Shown here one piece after another: positions 49,803 to 55,741 of a DNA stretch of 64,000 nt (positions are counted from its first letter, which is position 1; each line of letters starts with the position of its first letter). Where the stretch lies: assembly GCF_007827695.1 (NCBI RefSeq), contig NZ_VITA01000009.1, forward strand, positions 1-64,000. Reading direction: 5' to 3'. The notes beneath the pieces are model-generated. The model searched no databases, was not told where the DNA came from, and was given only the letters and a program-made list of their open reading frames with translations. Source of the stretch: Sinorhizobium medicae (GTDB lineage: Bacteria; Pseudomonadota; Alphaproteobacteria; Rhizobiales; Rhizobiaceae). The translations under genes and the position numbers were made by a program.

Positions 49803-52800
49803 TTAAACCAGTTCGACGTCCACGACACCGGGTGCGGAGCGAAGGGCGGCCGCAATCTCGGGTGATATCCGGTATTTCTCGCTGAGTTCGACTTCGATTT
49901 CCCGCTGCCCGTTATCCTTGATGACGATGAAGGAGACCAGGCCGTCTCCTCTGGCGTTGAGATGCGACGCGATGGAGCGCAACGGTCCGCAGTCGCGCAC
50001 ATAGACGCGCAGCGCCTTCTGCATCTGCAGCGATTCCTCCTCGAGGGAACGCAGTGTGCGAATGCGAAGGCCGATGCCCTCCGGCCGCTCTTCGGCGTCG
50101 ACGGTCATCACCAGCGATTTGCCGGCCTCCAAGAGATCGCGATACTGGTTCAGCATTTCGGAGAAAAGGACTGCTTCGAACTGGCCGGAGGCGTCCGAGA
50201 AGGCGACGATCCCCATCTTGTTACCGGTGCGCGTTTTGCGCTCCTGCTTCGACGTCACCGTCCCTGCGAGGCGGCCCGCCGTCGCTCCCTTTTTTACGGC
50301 GGCCGAAAAATCCGCGAATGTCTGCACGCGCATCTTCGCCAGAAGACTGTTGTAAGTGTCGAGCGGATGAGCGGAGAGATAGAAGCCCAGCACCTGGAAC
50401 TCGCGGTGCAGCTTTTCCGAGGCGAGCCAAGGGGTATAGGGCGGCAACGCGATCTTCTCGGGCCCGGTAGCGGCACCCGCGCCGAACATGTCGCTCTGGC
50501 CGCTCACCTTGTTCTCCTGGGCACGCTGCGCGAAACCGAGGATACGATCGAGCCCGCCGACGAGTTCCGCCCGGTCGTAGCCGAAGCAGTCGAAAGCACC
50601 GGCAGCGATCAGGCTTTCGAAGACACGGCGGTTCAAGAGCTTCGGGTCGATCCTCAGGCAGAAATCCTCGAGACTTGCGAAAGGCCGGTCTTCACGCACG
50701 GCGACGATGTGGTCGACGGCCGACTCGCCGACGCCCTTGAGGGCGGCAAGCGAGTAATAGATGCGCTTTTCGCCGGTTTCGAAGTGACGGTGCGAGGTCT
50801 GCACGGATGGCGCGATCACCTGTATTCCGAGGCGCATCGCGTCCTGGCGGAAATCGTTGATCTTCTCGGTGTTCGACATGTCGAGCGTCATCGAGGCTGC
50901 GAGGAACTCGACCGGATAGTGTGCCTTCATATAGGCGGTCTGATAGGAAACGATGGCGTAGGCGGCCGCGTGCGATTTGTTGAACCCGTAATTGGCGAAT
51001 TTGGCGAGAAGGTCGAAGATCAGATCGGCCTGCGGCTTGGAAACGCCGTTCCTGACTGCGCCATCGACGAAGCGGGCACGCTGCTTGTCCATCTCCTCCT
51101 TGATCTTCTTGCCCATGGCACGGCGCAGAAGGTCTGCCTCGCCGAGCGAGTAACCCGAGAGCACCTGGGCGATCTGCATCACCTGCTCCTGATAGACGAT
51201 GACGCCCTGTGTCTCCTTGAGCAGGTAATCGATCTTCGGATGGATCGATTCGATCTCTTCTTCGCCGTGCTTGCGGGCGTTGTAGATAGGGATGTTCTCC
51301 ATCGGCCCCGGACGATAGAGCGCCACAAGCGCGATGATGTCCTCGATGCAGTCCGGGCGCATGCCGATAAGCGCCTTGCGCATGCCGGCACTTTCCACCT
51401 GGAACACGCCGACCGTCTCGCCGCGCGAGAGGGTCTCATATGTCTTCGGGTCGTCGAGGGGAATGCTTGCAAGGTCGATATGGATGCCGCGCTTGGCGAC
51501 GAAGTCGACCGCCGTCTTCAGCACCGTCAGCGTCTTCAGGCCCAGGAAGTCGAACTTCACGAGGCCTGCCTGCTCGACCCATTTCATGTTGAACTGGGTC
51601 ACCGGCATGTCGGAGCGCGGATCGCGATACATCGGCACAAGCTGCGAGAGCGGGCGGTCGCCGATGACGATACCGGCCGCATGTGTGGAGGCGTGGCGGT
51701 AAAGTCCTTCGATCTTCTGCGCAATGTCGAGAAGCCGGCCGACGACCGGCTCCTTCTCCGCCTCTTCCTGCAGCCGCGGCTCCTCCTCTATGGCCTTGGA
51801 AAGCGGTGTCGGATTTGCGGGATTGTTCGGCACCAGCTTACAGATCTTGTCGACCTGGCCGTAGGGCATTTCCAGGACGCGACCGACGTCACGAAGTGCT
51901 GCGCGCGCCTGCAGCGATCCGAAGGTGATGATCTGCGCTACCTGCTCGCGTCCATATTTCTGCTGTACGTAGCGGATGACCTCCTCACGCCGATCCTGGC
52001 AGAAATCGATATCGAAGTCCGGCATCGACACGCGCTCGGGATTGAGGAAGCGCTCGAACAGCAGCGAGAAGCGCATCGGATCGACGTCGGTAATCGTCAG
52101 TGCATAGGCGACCAGTGAGCCGGCGCCGGAGCCGCGCCCCGGCCCGACCGGGATGTCATGCTGCTTGGCCCATTTGATGAAGTCGGCAACGATGAGGAAG
52201 TAACCCGGAAACTTCATCCGCTCGATGACGCCGAGTTCGAAGGCCAGCCGCTCCCGGTAGTCCTCTTCCTTGTAGCCGGGGGCCATGCCGAGCTTGGCGA
52301 GGCGCCCCTCCAATCCCTCCTCCGCCTGACGGCGCAGCTCGGCCACCTCGGCGCGTTCCGCCTGCTCCGGATCACCCGAAGCGCCGGTAAAGCGCGGTAG
52401 GATCGGGCTGCGGGTCTTCAGCATGAAGGAGCAGCGTCGAGCGATCTCGATCGTATTCTCCAGCGCCTCCGGCAGGTCTGCGAAAAGCGCCGCCATCTCC
52501 TTGCGGCTTTTCAGATAATGGTCCGGCGTCAGACGAAAACGGCTGTCGTCGGAGACCATGGCATTATGGGCGACGGCCATCAGCGCATCATGGGCATCGT
52601 AGTCCGCCGGCGACGGGAAAAACGCCTCATTGGTGGCAACGAGCGGAACGTCGAGCCGATAGGCAAGATCGATCATGCGGTTTTCGTGACTGCGGTCGTA
52701 ATTCCCATGCCTCTGCAACTCGACATAGAGCCGATCGCCGAAAAGTTCGATCAGCGTCTTCAACCGCGCCTCGGCCAGGGCCGGCGAACCCGCCTTCACC

Positions 52801-53300
52801 GCCATATCGATCGGCCCGGTACCTGCCCCGGTAAGCGCAATGAGACCGGATGTGCCGCCCGCCGAAAGCCAGGAGCGGCTTATTCGCACCTGATGGTGCC
52901 CCTCGCCTTCGAGGTAGGCGCGGCTAACCAGCTCCACGAGGCGGGCATAACCGTCATCGGTTGCTGCGATCAGCACAAGCGACGGAAGTTTGACGAACTG
53001 ATGCGCATGGCCGCGCCGCTCGCCTTCGGCCTCATCCTCCATGTCGATCGAGAGCTGACAACCGATGATCGGTTGCAGTCCGTCCCCGGCGGCCTTCTGC
53101 GAGAATTCGAGCGCCGCGAAGAGGTTATTGGTGTCGGCGATACCGATCGCCGGCTGATCGTCGGCGATCGCCTTGCCGATGATCTTCTTCAAGGGCAAGG
53201 CGCCTTCCAGCAAGGAATAGGCGGAATGCACGCGCAGGTGGACGAACTGCGGATCCGCCACAGCCCCTGCGACCTGTCCGATACCCTGGTTGCCTGTCAT
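49803..53300 (-). CDS. dnaE: DNA polymerase III subunit alpha
   Basis: This is the replicative polymerase catalytic subunit (1165 residues, usual length). An N-terminal PHP domain (FVHLRVHSAYSLLEGALP onward) precedes the Pol III catalytic region. Its metal-binding aspartates are in MPDFDIDFCQDRREEV, with GPGRGSGAGSLVAYAL upstream and the finger segment GMRKALIGMRPDCIED. The C terminus holds the helix-hairpin-helix and OB folds. The ATG at 53300 is selected on family length; the frame upstream is non-homologous. A 28-codon SOS-controlled gene ends 157 bp upstream on the same strand. Confidence 0.96.
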   Translation of the reverse strand: MTGNQGIGQVAGAVADPQFVHLRVHSAYSLLEGALPLKKIIGKAIADDQPAIGIADTNNLFAALEFSQKAAGDGLQPIIGCQLSIDMEDEAEGERRGHAHQFVKLPSLVLIAATDDGYARLVELVSRAYLEGEGHHQVRISRSWLSAGGTSGLIALTGAGTGPIDMAVKAGSPALAEARLKTLIELFGDRLYVELQRHGNYDRSHENRMIDLAYRLDVPLVATNEAFFPSPADYDAHDALMAVAHNAMVSDDSRFRLTPDHYLKSRKEMAALFADLPEALENTIEIARRCSFMLKTRSPILPRFTGASGDPEQAERAEVAELRRQAEEGLEGRLAKLGMAPGYKEEDYRERLAFELGVIERMKFPGYFLIVADFIKWAKQHDIPVGPGRGSGAGSLVAYALTITDVDPMRFSLLFERFLNPERVSMPDFDIDFCQDRREEVIRYVQQKYGREQVAQIITFGSLQARAALRDVGRVLEMPYGQVDKICKLVPNNPANPTPLSKAIEEEPRLQEEAEKEPVVGRLLDIAQKIEGLYRHASTHAAGIVIGDRPLSQLVPMYRDPRSDMPVTQFNMKWVEQAGLVKFDFLGLKTLTVLKTAVDFVAKRGIHIDLASIPLDDPKTYETLSRGETVGVFQVESAGMRKALIGMRPDCIEDIIALVALYRPGPMENIPIYNARKHGEEEIESIHPKIDYLLKETQGVIVYQEQVMQIAQVLSGYSLGEADLLRRAMGKKIKEEMDKQRARFVDGAVRNGVSKPQADLIFDLLAKFANYGFNKSHAAAYAIVSYQTAYMKAHYPVEFLAASMTLDMSNTEKINDFRQDAMRLGIQVIAPSVQTSHRHFETGEKRIYYSLAALKGVGESAVDHIVAVREDRPFASLEDFCLRIDPKLLNRRVFESLIAAGAFDCFGYDRAELVGGLDRILGFAQRAQENKVSGQSDMFGAGAATGPEKIALPPYTPWLASEKLHREFQVLGFYLSAHPLDTYNSLLAKMRVQTFADFSAAVKKGATAGRLAGTVTSKQERKTRTGNKMGIVAFSDASGQFEAVLFSEMLNQYRDLLEAGKSLVMTVDAEERPEGIGLRIRTLRSLEEESLQMQKALRVYVRDCGPLRSIASHLNARGDGLVSFIVIKDNGQREIEVELSEKYRISPEIAAALRSAPGVVDVELV

Positions 53301-53457
53301 CGCCGCACTCCGATTCTCGTCGGCGTCGAGGATATCCTGTTTCCTGTCCCCGCTGTCCAGTCTCAAGCGTGGAAGGACAGAGGTTTTGATCAGTCCGTGG
53401 CACACACCGCTAGAGGGGCACTCATGAGCTGGGCGAATGCAGGGGCACGTATGCGGG

Positions 53458-53544
53458 TCACAAGCCCAGGGCGATTACCGAGATGCTCGCGATGAAGAGG
53501 CTCATCGAGGCGAAGGCAGCAAGATCGCGTATGAAATCAGCCAT
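53458..53544 (-). CDS. 28-residue predicted membrane peptide under LexA control
   Basis: The frame starts at the ATG at 53544, seven bases after a strong AAGGAGA ribosome binding site, and ends at TGA 53458-53460. It encodes 28 residues: a short charged head (MADFIRDL) and a hydrophobic helix (AAFASMSLFIASISVIALGL). This suggests one inner-membrane segment. The promoter directly upstream is overlapped by two LexA boxes. Size, topology and regulation match the Caulobacter SOS division inhibitor SidA (29 residues). Sequence homology has not been tested. The possibility that this is a fortuitous frame is reduced by the RBS and promoter geometry. Confidence 0.65.
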   Translation of the reverse strand: MADFIRDLAAFASMSLFIASISVIALGL

Positions 53545-53567
53545 AACTTGTCTCCTTTTCCGCTAAT

Positions 53568-53593
53568 GTTCCTGTTATGTTCCATTTTTGTTC
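53568..53593 (-). promoter_or_regulatory. Two overlapping LexA boxes (three GTTC spaced by 7)
   Basis: GTTC occurs at 53568, 53579 and 53590, each separated from the next by exactly seven bases. This gives two overlapping GTTC-N7-GTTC LexA operators. They cover the spacer and -10 region of the promoter for the 28-residue peptide. Confidence 0.9.
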
Positions 53594-53602
53594 GGTAGTC
53601 AA
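53574..53602 (-). promoter_or_regulatory. Promoter of the SOS-controlled micro-gene
   Basis: On the minus strand, TTGACT (53602-53597) and CATAAC (53579-53574) are separated by exactly 17 bp. Transcription would begin near 53567, giving a leader of about 22 nt with the AAGGAGA site in it. Both LexA boxes overlap this promoter. Confidence 0.75.
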
Positions 53603-53723: not shown

Positions 53724-54410
53724 CTATCTTAGCTCGACCACCTTGCCGTCCTCGATCGTAACGCGACGGTCCATCAGGGAAGCGAGCTCGTGATTGTGGG
53801 TTGCGATCAGCGCAGCCAGGCCGGACTGGCGCGCCAGCGCTTCCAGCGCCTCGAACACATAGCCGGCCGTCTCCGGATCGAGATTGCCGGTGGGCTCATC
53901 CGCCAGAAGGATTAGCGGAGCATTGGCGACCGCTCTTGCAATGGCAACGCGCTGCTGTTCGCCGCCGGAAAGTTCGGTTGGACGATGGCTGCCCCGATGG
54001 CCGATGCGCATATAGTCCAGGAGAGCCGATGCCCGCTCCGCCGCCTCGGCTTTGGATAACCCCGCGATCAGCTGCGGCATCATGATGTTCTCCAGCGCGG
54101 AGAATTCCGGCAGGAGATGGTGAAACTGGTAGACGAACCCGATCTCGTTGCGGCGGATGGCCGTGCGCCGGTCGTCGCTGAGCCCATTGCAGGAGGCTCC
54201 GTTCACGAGCACCTCCCCCTCATCGGGATGTTCGAGCAGCCCGGCGATGTGAAGCAATGTCGATTTGCCAGTGCCGGACGGCGCCACGAGGGCGACCGTC
54301 TCGCCGCTTCGCAAAGTCAGGTCCGCCCCCTTGAGGATCGGCAGGAAGGTTTCGCCCTCGCCATAATGCCGCTCGATGCCGGAGAGCTGCAGTGCCACGC
54401 GCGCATTCAT
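53724..54410 (-). CDS. lolD: Lipoprotein-releasing ABC transporter ATPase LolD
   Basis: This ATPase powers release of outer-membrane lipoproteins from the inner membrane to LolA. The 228 residues carry Walker A ([12 protein letters not shown]), the Q-loop, the signature [14 protein letters not shown], Walker B ([13 protein letters not shown]) and the switch His (IATHNHELA). It lies 17 bp after the permease gene, and both are on the minus strand. Confidence 0.94.
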
Positions 54411-54427: not shown

Positions 54428-55741
54428 TTATTCGTACCGCAGGGCCTGCACCGGATCGAGGCGCGAGGCGCGCCAGGCCGGGAAGATCGTGGCAAGGAAG
54501 GAAAGCGCGAGCGCCATGATGACGACGGTGACAGTCTCGTCGGCATTCATGTCAGCCGGAAGCTGACTCAGGAAGTAAAGCTCCGGATCGAAAAGCGTGG
54601 CGCCCGAGACCCAGGAGAAGAACTGGCGGATCGATTCGATATTCAGGCAGACGACGACCCCGAGGACGACGCCGGCGATCGTTCCCGTGACGCCTATGGC
54701 TGCGCCGGTCATGAAGAAGATTCGCATCACCGAGCCGGAGGTCGCCCCCATCGTCCTGAGGATCGCGATGTCACTGCCCTTATCCTTCACCAGCATGATC
54801 AGGCCGGAGATGATATTCAGCGCCGCGACCAGCACGATGAGCGTCAGGATCATGAACATGACGTTCCGCTCCACCTCGAGCGCGGAAAAGAACGTCCTGT
54901 TCCGTTCGCGCCAGTCGGTGATGAATATCTGCCGGCCGGCCGCCTTCTCCACCGGCTCGCGAAGCGTGTCGACGGCATCCGGATGCTCGACGAAAAGCTC
55001 GATCGACTGGACGAGGCCCTCGGCGTTGAAATAGAGCTGTGCTTCCTCGAGCGGCATGAAGATGATGGTCGCGTCGTATTCCGACATGCCCATCTCGAAT
55101 ATGGCCGAAACGGTATAGCCCTTGACCCTCGGATTCATGCCCATCGGCGTCACGTCGCCGTTCGGCGAGGTGAGCGTGATCGTCCCGCCCACGCGGATAC
55201 CCAATTGCTCGGCCATGCGCGAGCCGATGGCGACGCCGCTGCCCGAAGCGAAACCGACGAGGTCGCCCGCCTGGATTTTTTCCGAGACCGACTTGAGCTT
55301 GGTGAGGTCGTCAGCGCGTATTCCGCGAACGAGCGCACCCGTCGAGGCATCCCCGAAGCCTTGCGCGAGAACCTGGCCCTCGACGATCGGAATGGCCATG
55401 GTGACGCCGGGAACGGCGGAAAACCTGGTGGCGAGATCGGCGTAATTTGTGAGCGGTCCATCCAGCGGTTGAACGATCATATGGCCGTTCATGCCGAGAA
55501 TGCGTGAAATGAGCTCGGTTCTGAAGCCGTTCATCACCGCCATGACGATGATCAGCGTTCCGACCCCGAGCATGATCCCGATGAAAGAAAAGCCGGCGAT
55601 GACCGAGATGAAGGCTTCCTTCCGCCGCGAACGCAGGTAGCGCCAGGCGACCATACGCTCGAAAGCGGAGAAGGGACGGCCGGAAGGTATGCTGGATGGA
55701 GCGGCAGCCTGCACTTGCTCGTCCGTCGCCGCAGTCATCAT
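54428..55741 (-). CDS. lolC: Lipoprotein-releasing ABC transporter permease (LolC/E type)
   Basis: This inner-membrane permease of 437 residues has one N-terminal helix (about 44-68), a large periplasmic MacB-like domain (about 70-285) and three C-terminal helices (about 300-425, FtsX domain). The N-terminal AWRYLRSRRKEAFISVIAGFS is the family start. Only one LolC/E permease gene accompanies lolD, so a homodimeric permease is expected, as in other alphaproteobacteria. It follows proS by 15 bp on the same strand. Confidence 0.93.
   Translation of the reverse strand: MMTAATDEQVQAAAPSSIPSGRPFSAFERMVAWRYLRSRRKEAFISVIAGFSFIGIMLGVGTLIIVMAVMNGFRTELISRILGMNGHMIVQPLDGPLTNYADLATRFSAVPGVTMAIPIVEGQVLAQGFGDASTGALVRGIRADDLTKLKSVSEKIQAGDLVGFASGSGVAIGSRMAEQLGIRVGGTITLTSPNGDVTPMGMNPRVKGYTVSAIFEMGMSEYDATIIFMPLEEAQLYFNAEGLVQSIELFVEHPDAVDTLREPVEKAAGRQIFITDWRERNRTFFSALEVERNVMFMILTLIVLVAALNIISGLIMLVKDKGSDIAILRTMGATSGSVMRIFFMTGAAIGVTGTIAGVVLGVVVCLNIESIRQFFSWVSGATLFDPELYFLSQLPADMNADETVTVVIMALALSFLATIFPAWRASRLDPVQALRYE

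What the first reader, a model, noticed from the sequence alone, without database searches (positions are those of the whole stretch)
53458..53602. SOS-controlled 28-residue membrane peptide, a candidate rhizobial SidA
The sequence directly shows a strong ribosome binding site (AAGGAGA), a 28-codon frame encoding one hydrophobic helix, and a -35/-10 pair (TTGACT-17-CATAAC). Three GTTC half-sites at exact seven-base spacing give two overlapping alphaproteobacterial LexA operators over that promoter. In Caulobacter, LexA controls SidA, a 29-residue inner-membrane protein that blocks division by acting on FtsW/FtsN. The match in size, topology and control is strong. Homology is untested, and such small genes are routinely missed. 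A role in delaying division after DNA damage in rhizobia, where bacteroids undergo division arrest, would be notable.
Basis: partly seen in the sequence, partly recalled or inferred. Interest (0 to 1): 0.88.

Follow-up and report, generated by a model that had tools for sequence, protein, structure and literature searches.

The report
Rhizobial SidA, a division-arrest peptide
A tiny unannotated gene in a Sinorhizobium-like genome encodes a 28-residue membrane peptide that looks like the counterpart of Caulobacter's SidA, which stops cell division when DNA is damaged, and three Rhizobium viruses appear to carry a copy of the same peptide.

Summary
The 28-codon frame, its ribosome site and two overlapping GAAC-N7-GAAC LexA operators are where stated; only the -10 element is weak and not conserved. 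The frame is a real gene: in 23 of 23 genus loci it evolves as protein (pN/pS 0.11). S. meliloti 2011 has a Ribo-seq-detected "sORF25" in the dnaE1 5'-UTR, very probably this gene.
The peptide sits upstream of dnaE from Rhizobiales to Caulobacteraceae, where the counterpart is mostly 29 residues, the published SidA length. In two Caulobacter-type genomes a nucleoside hydrolase gene lies beside it, as the locus tags CCNA_02005 (hydrolase) and CCNA_02004 (sidA) predict. A profile of Rhizobiales peptides recognises 28 of 29 Caulobacteraceae peptides above shuffles, in register. recA and lexA of the same genome carry the same operator.
Best reading: a SidA ortholog, a LexA-repressed inhibitor of the FtsW/I/N complex. 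Its activity in rhizobia is inferred, not shown, and I never held the SidA sequence itself.
By-product: three Rhizobium phages encode a 42-residue protein whose core matches this peptide, a possible phage copy of the host checkpoint.

The parts
53458..53544 (-). sORF, 28 codons plus stop: SidA-type single-helix membrane peptide
   Evidence: protein-like conservation in 23 of 23 genus loci
53551..53557 (-). ribosome binding site AAGGAGA, six bases before the ATG
   Evidence: AAAGGAG in 23 of 23 genus loci
53579..53593 (-). LexA operator 1, GAACAAAAATGGAAC; at least one exact box in 23 of 23 genus loci
   Evidence: same kind of box upstream of recA and lexA of this genome
53568..53582 (-). LexA operator 2, GAACATAACAGGAAC, overlapping operator 1; the triple half-site is exact in 13 of 23 genus loci
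53597..53602 (-). -35 element TTGACT, in 23 of 23 genus loci
53574..53579 (-). putative -10 element CATAAC, inside operator 2; not conserved in the genus loci
   Evidence: no promoter under the stricter scan
49803..53300 (-). dnaE1, DNA polymerase III alpha subunit (start ATG 53300, the start annotated in S. meliloti; the longest frame starts at 53405)
53724..54410 (-). lolD-type ABC transporter ATP-binding protein, upstream neighbour
   Evidence: same gene order in S. meliloti CP090106.1

Best explanation
The frame is the Sinorhizobium ortholog of Caulobacter sidA. LexA sits on the two overlapping operators over the promoter and keeps it low. When RecA on single-stranded DNA triggers LexA self-cleavage, the 28-residue peptide is made, inserts in the inner membrane as one helix, and holds the assembled FtsW/FtsI/FtsN complex in its inactive state so that septation waits until the damage is cleared. 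Shown here or in print: the gene, its operators, its conservation as protein, its shared position and sequence with Caulobacteraceae 29-mers, and translation of a dnaE1-leader sORF in S. meliloti. Inferred: LexA control, membrane insertion, FtsW as target, and division arrest in rhizobia.
For: Coding conservation: 23 of 23 genus loci (22 relatives and the window; a 23rd relative, G319, had no dnaE1 match and was not examined) have the 28-codon frame; differences from the window fall 61/11/226 at codon positions 1/2/3, pooled pN/pS 0.114; identity 0.87 in the frame against 0.49 between the frame and dnaE. Position: 27 of 30 loci fetched by peptide similarity in the order, the window included, have dnaE next to the match. 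In dnaE-anchored loci, chosen without the peptide, a strict rule (hydrophobic 22-50 aa frame with ribosome site and an exact GAAC-N7-GAAC starting 30-95 bases before it) is met by 23 of 30, 13 of 90, 14 of 30 and 23 of 80, against 0 of 230 for each of two control patterns. Caulobacteraceae: 32 of 35 loci carry a peptide there, 27 of the 32 read as 29 aa (see the selection told under Tried and rejected). Published: SidA is a 29-aa inner-membrane protein acting on FtsW; sidA is CCNA_02004, CCNA_02005 is a nucleoside hydrolase, CC1926 is dnaE. In L197 and L192 that hydrolase lies beside the peptide on the other strand. Profile built on order-level peptides only: for 28 of 29 distinct Caulobacteraceae peptides at most 15 of 300 shuffles that keep the hydrophobic pattern score as high; hhalign 91.8% probability, 0 of 200 column permutations as good. 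recA and lexA of this genome have the same box. FtsW of this genome has A, F, A at the places of Caulobacter A31, F145, A246.
Against: The C. crescentus SidA letters were never in hand; the 2011 paper that, from recall, first described SidA is not held. Identity to the two Caulobacteraceae peptides aligned is only 21%, and the W of other lineages is missing. The peptide of L197/L192, the one tied to the locus tags, is among the weaker matches (9.7 bits; 6 of 300 pattern-keeping shuffles as high), and for two other peptides 6 and 74 of 300 shuffles do as well. My own hhalign run with other settings gave only 30% probability for the same pair. The hydrolase is found in 2 of 35 loci only. Exact boxes precede the frame in only 14 of 30 Caulobacteraceae loci. 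The FtsW argument is weak: F145 and A246 are the same in all six FtsW aligned, and a genus relative has T at the A31 place. Mesorhizobium (3), Aquibium (1), Azospirillum (1) and three Rhodobacterales loci looked at closely have neither box nor SidA-like frame. No damage-induction or phenotype data are at hand.
Confidence: 0.82

Rival explanations
1. It is a regulatory upstream frame (uORF or leader peptide) whose translation sets the expression of dnaE1, the peptide itself being unimportant.
For: The authors of the S. meliloti Ribo-seq study suggest this for some 5'-UTR sORFs and name sORF25 in the dnaE1 5'-UTR. The frame precedes dnaE in nearly every locus where I found it, and in L192 and L197 its stop lies 25 and 19-22 bases before a dnaE start codon.
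Against: Residues are conserved with low pN/pS and recognisably across orders, while the distance to dnaE varies (-8 to 261 bases by the estimated start; 397 bases in L040). A relative lies downstream of dnaE on the other strand in L196, and the phage relatives lie among genes annotated as hypothetical.
Confidence: 0.08
2. It is an SOS-induced membrane toxin of the TisB/DinQ sort that depolarises the membrane, not a divisome inhibitor.
For: Small hydrophobic single-helix peptides under LexA include such toxins (DinQ: PMC3567139, abstract start seen in the listing; TisB recalled). Size and operator fit.
Against: Shared position and profile with the SidA-bearing locus of Caulobacteraceae. An antisense RNA partner was not searched for.
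Confidence: 0.08
3. The frame is not a gene; the LexA boxes serve dnaE1 alone.
For: Unannotated in the S. meliloti record CP090106.1, whose gene table may be incomplete; no Pfam, NCBIfam or PHROGs family for the 28-mer.
Against: Protein-type conservation, ribosome site, cross-order similarity and a published translated sORF in the dnaE1 5'-UTR.
Confidence: 0.02

Closest known systems
SidA of Caulobacter crescentus (CCNA_02004; PMC4211646 passages, PMC10769358 passage)
   Same: Length (28 against 29), one hydrophobic helix, LexA operator, place before dnaE; R6, D/E7, A10, S13, F17 in register with the Caulobacteraceae 29-mer of L197
   Different: 21% identity to the two Caulobacteraceae relatives aligned; lacks the W of FVWM; stop 157 bases from dnaE against 19-25 in L192 and L197; action on FtsW untested
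sORF25 of Sinorhizobium meliloti 2011 (PMC10117765: abstract, section 24 and passages read)
   Same: Ribo-seq-detected sORF in the dnaE1 5'-UTR; the 28-aa frame is the frame with a ribosome site found there in 22 of 23 genus loci and in S. meliloti
   Different: Its sequence, length and membrane prediction are in files I could not open, so identity is inferred; the authors suggest uORFs, and SidA, LexA and SOS have 0 occurrences in the main text
DidA of C. crescentus (PMC4211646 passages)
   Same: Damage-induced small membrane division inhibitor
   Different: SOS-independent, driven by DriD, binds FtsN rather than FtsW
YneA, DivS, ChiZ, SulA (other SOS division inhibitors)
   Same: SOS-induced division inhibitors
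   Different: sidA, yneA, divS and chiZ are called unrelated genes in PMC4211646 (passage); SulA acts on FtsZ
Hypothetical proteins QNG62709.1, QNH71773.1, QWY82965.1 of Rhizobium phages B1VFA, V1VFA-S, RHph_X66
   Same: Core DIARDGAAFLSMSLFIIAIS matches DFIRDLAAFASMSLFIASIS; 23.7 bits to the order-level profile, 0 of 5000 shuffles of either kind as good
   Different: 42 aa with extensions at both ends; no LexA box in the 900 bases before it; single-query E-value only 5

Membership tests
SidA | About 29 aa, one hydrophobic helix | tested here: met
   28 aa, best 17-residue hydropathy 2.16; membrane location itself not tested
SidA | LexA-repressed promoter | tested here: met
   Two overlapping operators, conserved; same box before recA and lexA. 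In silico only; LexA binding not tested
SidA | Chromosomal place directly upstream of dnaE | tested here: met
   for Caulobacter the place is inferred from locus tags and neighbours
SidA | Sequence homology | tested here: met
   Tested against Caulobacteraceae dnaE-upstream peptides, not the SidA letters themselves:
SidA | Binds FtsW (and FtsN) and blocks constriction | not testable with these tools
   FtsW of the window genome has A, F, A at the places of A31, F145, A246; consistent but weak
SidA | Induced by DNA damage through RecA | not testable with these tools
   No expression data at hand for damaged rhizobia
Leader peptide / uORF of dnaE | Function tied to closeness to dnaE, peptide sequence unimportant | tested here: not met
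   pN/pS 0.114, variable distance, relatives away from the dnaE leader in L196 and phages
TisB/DinQ-type SOS toxin | Membrane depolarisation, antisense RNA control | not tested
   -
DidA | DriD-controlled, LexA-independent | tested here: inconclusive
   LexA operators present, which argues against; DriD site not sought

The most novel reading that the evidence does not exclude
Phages have captured the SOS division inhibitor. Rhizobium phages B1VFA, V1VFA-S and RHph_X66 (and two IMG/VR contigs) encode a 42-residue protein with a SidA core that would block septation of the infected cell at FtsW. It has no LexA box just before it, but a GAAC-N7-GAAC box stands 43 bases before a gene upstream of it in all three phages, so it may act without DNA damage or be tied to the host's LexA through that gene's transcript. 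Host checkpoint peptide and phage protein would share one target on the divisome.
Probability: 0.42. Interest if true: 0.78.

Novelty: new member of a known kind. Interest (0 to 1): 0.63.

Why it matters
The papers I saw treat SidA as a Caulobacter protein, and one calls several SOS division inhibitors of different bacteria unrelated genes. If this holds, one small LexA-controlled peptide is the checkpoint of a good part of the Alphaproteobacteria, sitting in front of the replicative polymerase gene, and easily missed because it is under 50 codons. It gives the unexplained S. meliloti sORF25 a concrete, testable function, and it names a phage protein that may act on the same step.

Tried and rejected
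Reading the frame as chance: rejected by codon-position bias. Reading it as a dnaE leader: kept as a minor rival. The class-wide profile search by peptide alone (171 of 385 genomes at E up to 1) looks mostly like noise and was not counted; I anchored on dnaE instead. Pfam and NCBIfam on the 28-mer, and PHROGs on it and two phage proteins, gave nothing; no solved-structure sequence matches the profile at E up to 1. Phage searches with the Rhizobium tropici peptide and the L197 peptide found nothing, so the phage link rests on the Sinorhizobium query and the profile. In the listings I saw no title or abstract start that names a rhizobial SidA; full texts were not read for this, and the 2011 SidA paper is not held, so it may discuss homologs.

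Selection that could flatter the result: I kept Caulobacteraceae frames of 27-33 aa containing SLA, LAS, LSF, ASV or ASC, and among several starts took the one nearest 29 aa, so '29' is partly my choice; 32 of 35 loci remained (L190, L196, L199 dropped; L190 has a 29-mer with a box). The shuffles do not allow for this choice. The 94 high-scoring frames include members of the profile itself. The class sample of 90 loci is the 30 top-scoring dnaE matches plus 60 that I picked by family from those listed, out of 375 genomes with a match, not a random draw; the other sets are 30 of 39 matched relatives, 30 of 57 matched Caulobacteraceae and all 80 loci kept (589 stretches matched there, best 80 kept). 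The test for the hydrolase saw at most 1.5-1.8 kb upstream, and only 309 bases in L182.

Changed on checking: confidence 0.83 to 0.82 and the toxin rival 0.07 to 0.08, because the L197/L192 peptide is one of the weaker profile matches.

Full report
What is there. On the minus strand of the window, between a lolD-type gene (53724-54410) and dnaE1 (49803-53300), lies a 28-codon frame, ATG 53544 to stop 53458, with AAGGAGA six bases before it. Over its start region are three GAAC half-sites at exact seven-base spacing, which give two overlapping LexA operators. The window is from a Sinorhizobium-like genome: 45000-60000 matches S. meliloti record CP090106.1 over 81% at 89% identity, with the same gene order and an unannotated peptide 93% identical.

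It is a gene. In 23 of 23 genus loci (window included; relative G319 had no dnaE1 match and was not examined) the frame has 28 codons; differences from the window fall 61, 11 and 226 at codon positions 1, 2 and 3, pooled pN/pS is 0.114, and mean identity is 0.87 in the frame, 0.78 in the 110 bases before it and 0.49 between the frame and dnaE. At least one exact box precedes it in 23 of 23 and the triple half-site in 13 of 23. In the 420 bases before dnaE it is the frame with a ribosome site in 22 of 23 loci (L040 has it further up); other such frames appear only in some loci, among them one overlapping the dnaE start in 5 of 23. S. meliloti 2011 Ribo-seq found a novel sORF25 in the dnaE1 5'-UTR (PMC10117765: abstract, section 24 and passages). 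Its letters are in supplements I could not open, so its identity with this frame is inferred. The abstract speaks of growth in minimal medium, so some basal translation occurs.

How far it reaches. A search of 297 genomes of the order with the 28-mer gave 43 genomes with a match at E up to 10; of the 30 loci fetched, 27 have dnaE beside the match. To avoid circularity I then fetched loci by dnaE alone. A strict rule (hydrophobic 22-50 aa frame with a ribosome-site motif, within 450 bases of dnaE, an exact GAAC-N7-GAAC starting 30-95 bases before its start codon) is met in 23 of 30 relatives, 13 of 90 from across the class, 14 of 30 Caulobacteraceae and 23 of 80 named records; two control patterns of the same make are met in 0 of 230 each. 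Bearers, by record title, include Rhizobium tropici, Bradyrhizobium, Tardiphaga, Ancylobacter, Aureimonas, Ahrensia, Phenylobacterium, Maricaulis, Hellea and Aquisalinus; Neorhizobium and Devosia have the peptide without an exact box. Three Mesorhizobium, one Aquibium, one Azospirillum, one Acetobacteraceae and three Rhodobacterales loci looked at with a relaxed rule have neither box nor SidA-like frame; Commensalibacter (L267) has a box without a frame.

The link to SidA. In 32 of 35 a peptide stands before dnaE, 27 of the 32 read as 29 residues, a reading helped by my choice of start. Published facts: SidA is a 29-residue inner-membrane protein that interacts with FtsW and to some extent with FtsN (PMC4211646, passages); sidA is CCNA_02004 (PMC10769358, passage); CCNA_02005 is an inosine-uridine nucleoside hydrolase (PMC3667746, passage); dnaE copy 1 is CC1926 (PMC1839093, passage; that CC1926 and CCNA_02003 are one gene is my inference). 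In L197 and L192 the gene beside the 29-mer, on the other strand, is that hydrolase (PF01156, 264 bits, in L197; 93% identical in L192); in the other 33 loci it was not found in the flank held. The peptide at this place in Caulobacter is therefore very probably SidA, though I never held the SidA letters.

Sequence test. A profile from 23 order-level peptides (A1) scores the 29 distinct Caulobacteraceae peptides at a mean of 13.4 bits; shuffles that keep the pattern of hydrophobic, polar and charged residues average 1.3, and for 28 of 29 at most 15 of 300 of their own shuffles do as well. The weak ones are MVSALHNMLSFAAVTGFVFLMCHVVSLAA (74 of 300), MVSTLHNLLSFASVAGFVWVVCQLSMLVG (6 of 300) and the L197/L192 peptide itself (9.7 bits, 6 of 300; 0 of 300 for plain shuffles). 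hhalign of the two alignments gives 91.8% probability and aligns residue 1 with residue 1; with my own settings the score is 24.9 but the probability only 30%, and none of 200 column permutations reaches it (best 14.0). Shared in register by window and L197: R6, D/E7, A10, S13, F17. Of 97 hydrophobic 26-34 aa frames with 8 bits or more in all loci held then, 94 lie upstream of dnaE and 3 elsewhere (members of the profile are among the 94).

Regulation and target. The genome's recA has GAACAAGAACCGAAC starting 141 bases before its start codon and lexA has GAACACATATGGAAC 63 bases before its own. FtsW of this genome has A, F and A at the places aligned to Caulobacter A31, F145 and A246, where A31K suppresses SidA and F145L and A246T suppress SidA and DidA; the Caulobacter-type FtsW used (L300) has A, F and A at exactly those numbers. 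This is weak: F145 and A246 are the same in all six FtsW aligned, and a genus relative has T at the A31 place.

Phages. The 28-mer found two Rhizobium phage records at E = 5. The protein behind them, 42 residues, is annotated as hypothetical, has its own ribosome site and is present in three phages at 88-100% identity and in two IMG/VR contigs. It scores 23.7 bits with the order-level profile; none of 5000 plain and 5000 pattern-keeping shuffles reaches that, though the best of the latter comes to 23.4, and hhalign gives 94.6%. A GAAC-N7-GAAC box stands 43 bases before a gene further upstream in all three phages, but the three share 89-91% DNA identity there, so its conservation says little. 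Searches of the phages with two other SidA-type peptides found nothing. Homology is likely but not certain.

Verdict. Observation confirmed, interpretation supported: an unannotated member of the SidA kind in rhizobia, part of a family spread over several alphaproteobacterial groups. Function in rhizobia remains to be shown.

Noticed in passing
L312:2501-2629 (MT770738.1:41552-41680), L311, L310: Three Rhizobium phages encode a 42-aa hypothetical protein with a SidA-like core (MNDDRVSLKDIARDGAAFLSMSLFIIAISIACVAMKPVVLPV in B1VFA).
   Followed up: partly
L310:449, L311:1240, L312:1240: GAACGACTTTCGAAC, a LexA-type box, 43 bases before a hypothetical phage gene that lies upstream of the SidA-like gene.
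   Followed up: no
L037, L039, L045, L056, upstream of the sORF: 17 of 23 genus loci have a further GAAC-N7-GAAC box upstream; in the four genus loci whose frames I listed a minus-strand protein of one kind lies there, and a joined sample of it matches DUF5680. The window's 179-base lolD-sORF gap has no room for it.
   Followed up: partly
L196, minus strand, about 5614-5411: A Caulobacteraceae genome without the usual upstream peptide has a SidA-like sequence downstream of dnaE on the other strand; from an upstream ATG it would be 67 aa with a GAAC-N7-GAAC box 40 bases before it.
   Followed up: partly
L192, L197: The peptide's stop lies 19-25 bases before a dnaE start codon, so the replicative polymerase gene may share the LexA-controlled transcript.
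   Followed up: no
L307 (CP090106.1): S. meliloti Ak57 'plasmid pSymB' is 3.7 Mb and carries dnaE, a lolD-type gene and a prolyl-tRNA ligase gene; it looks like a mislabelled chromosome.
   Followed up: no
window 20111, 29961, 31729, 47096, 55518, 59016: Six further GAAC-N7-GAAC matches in the window; 55518-55532 lies inside the permease frame 54428-55741, the others were not examined.
   Followed up: no
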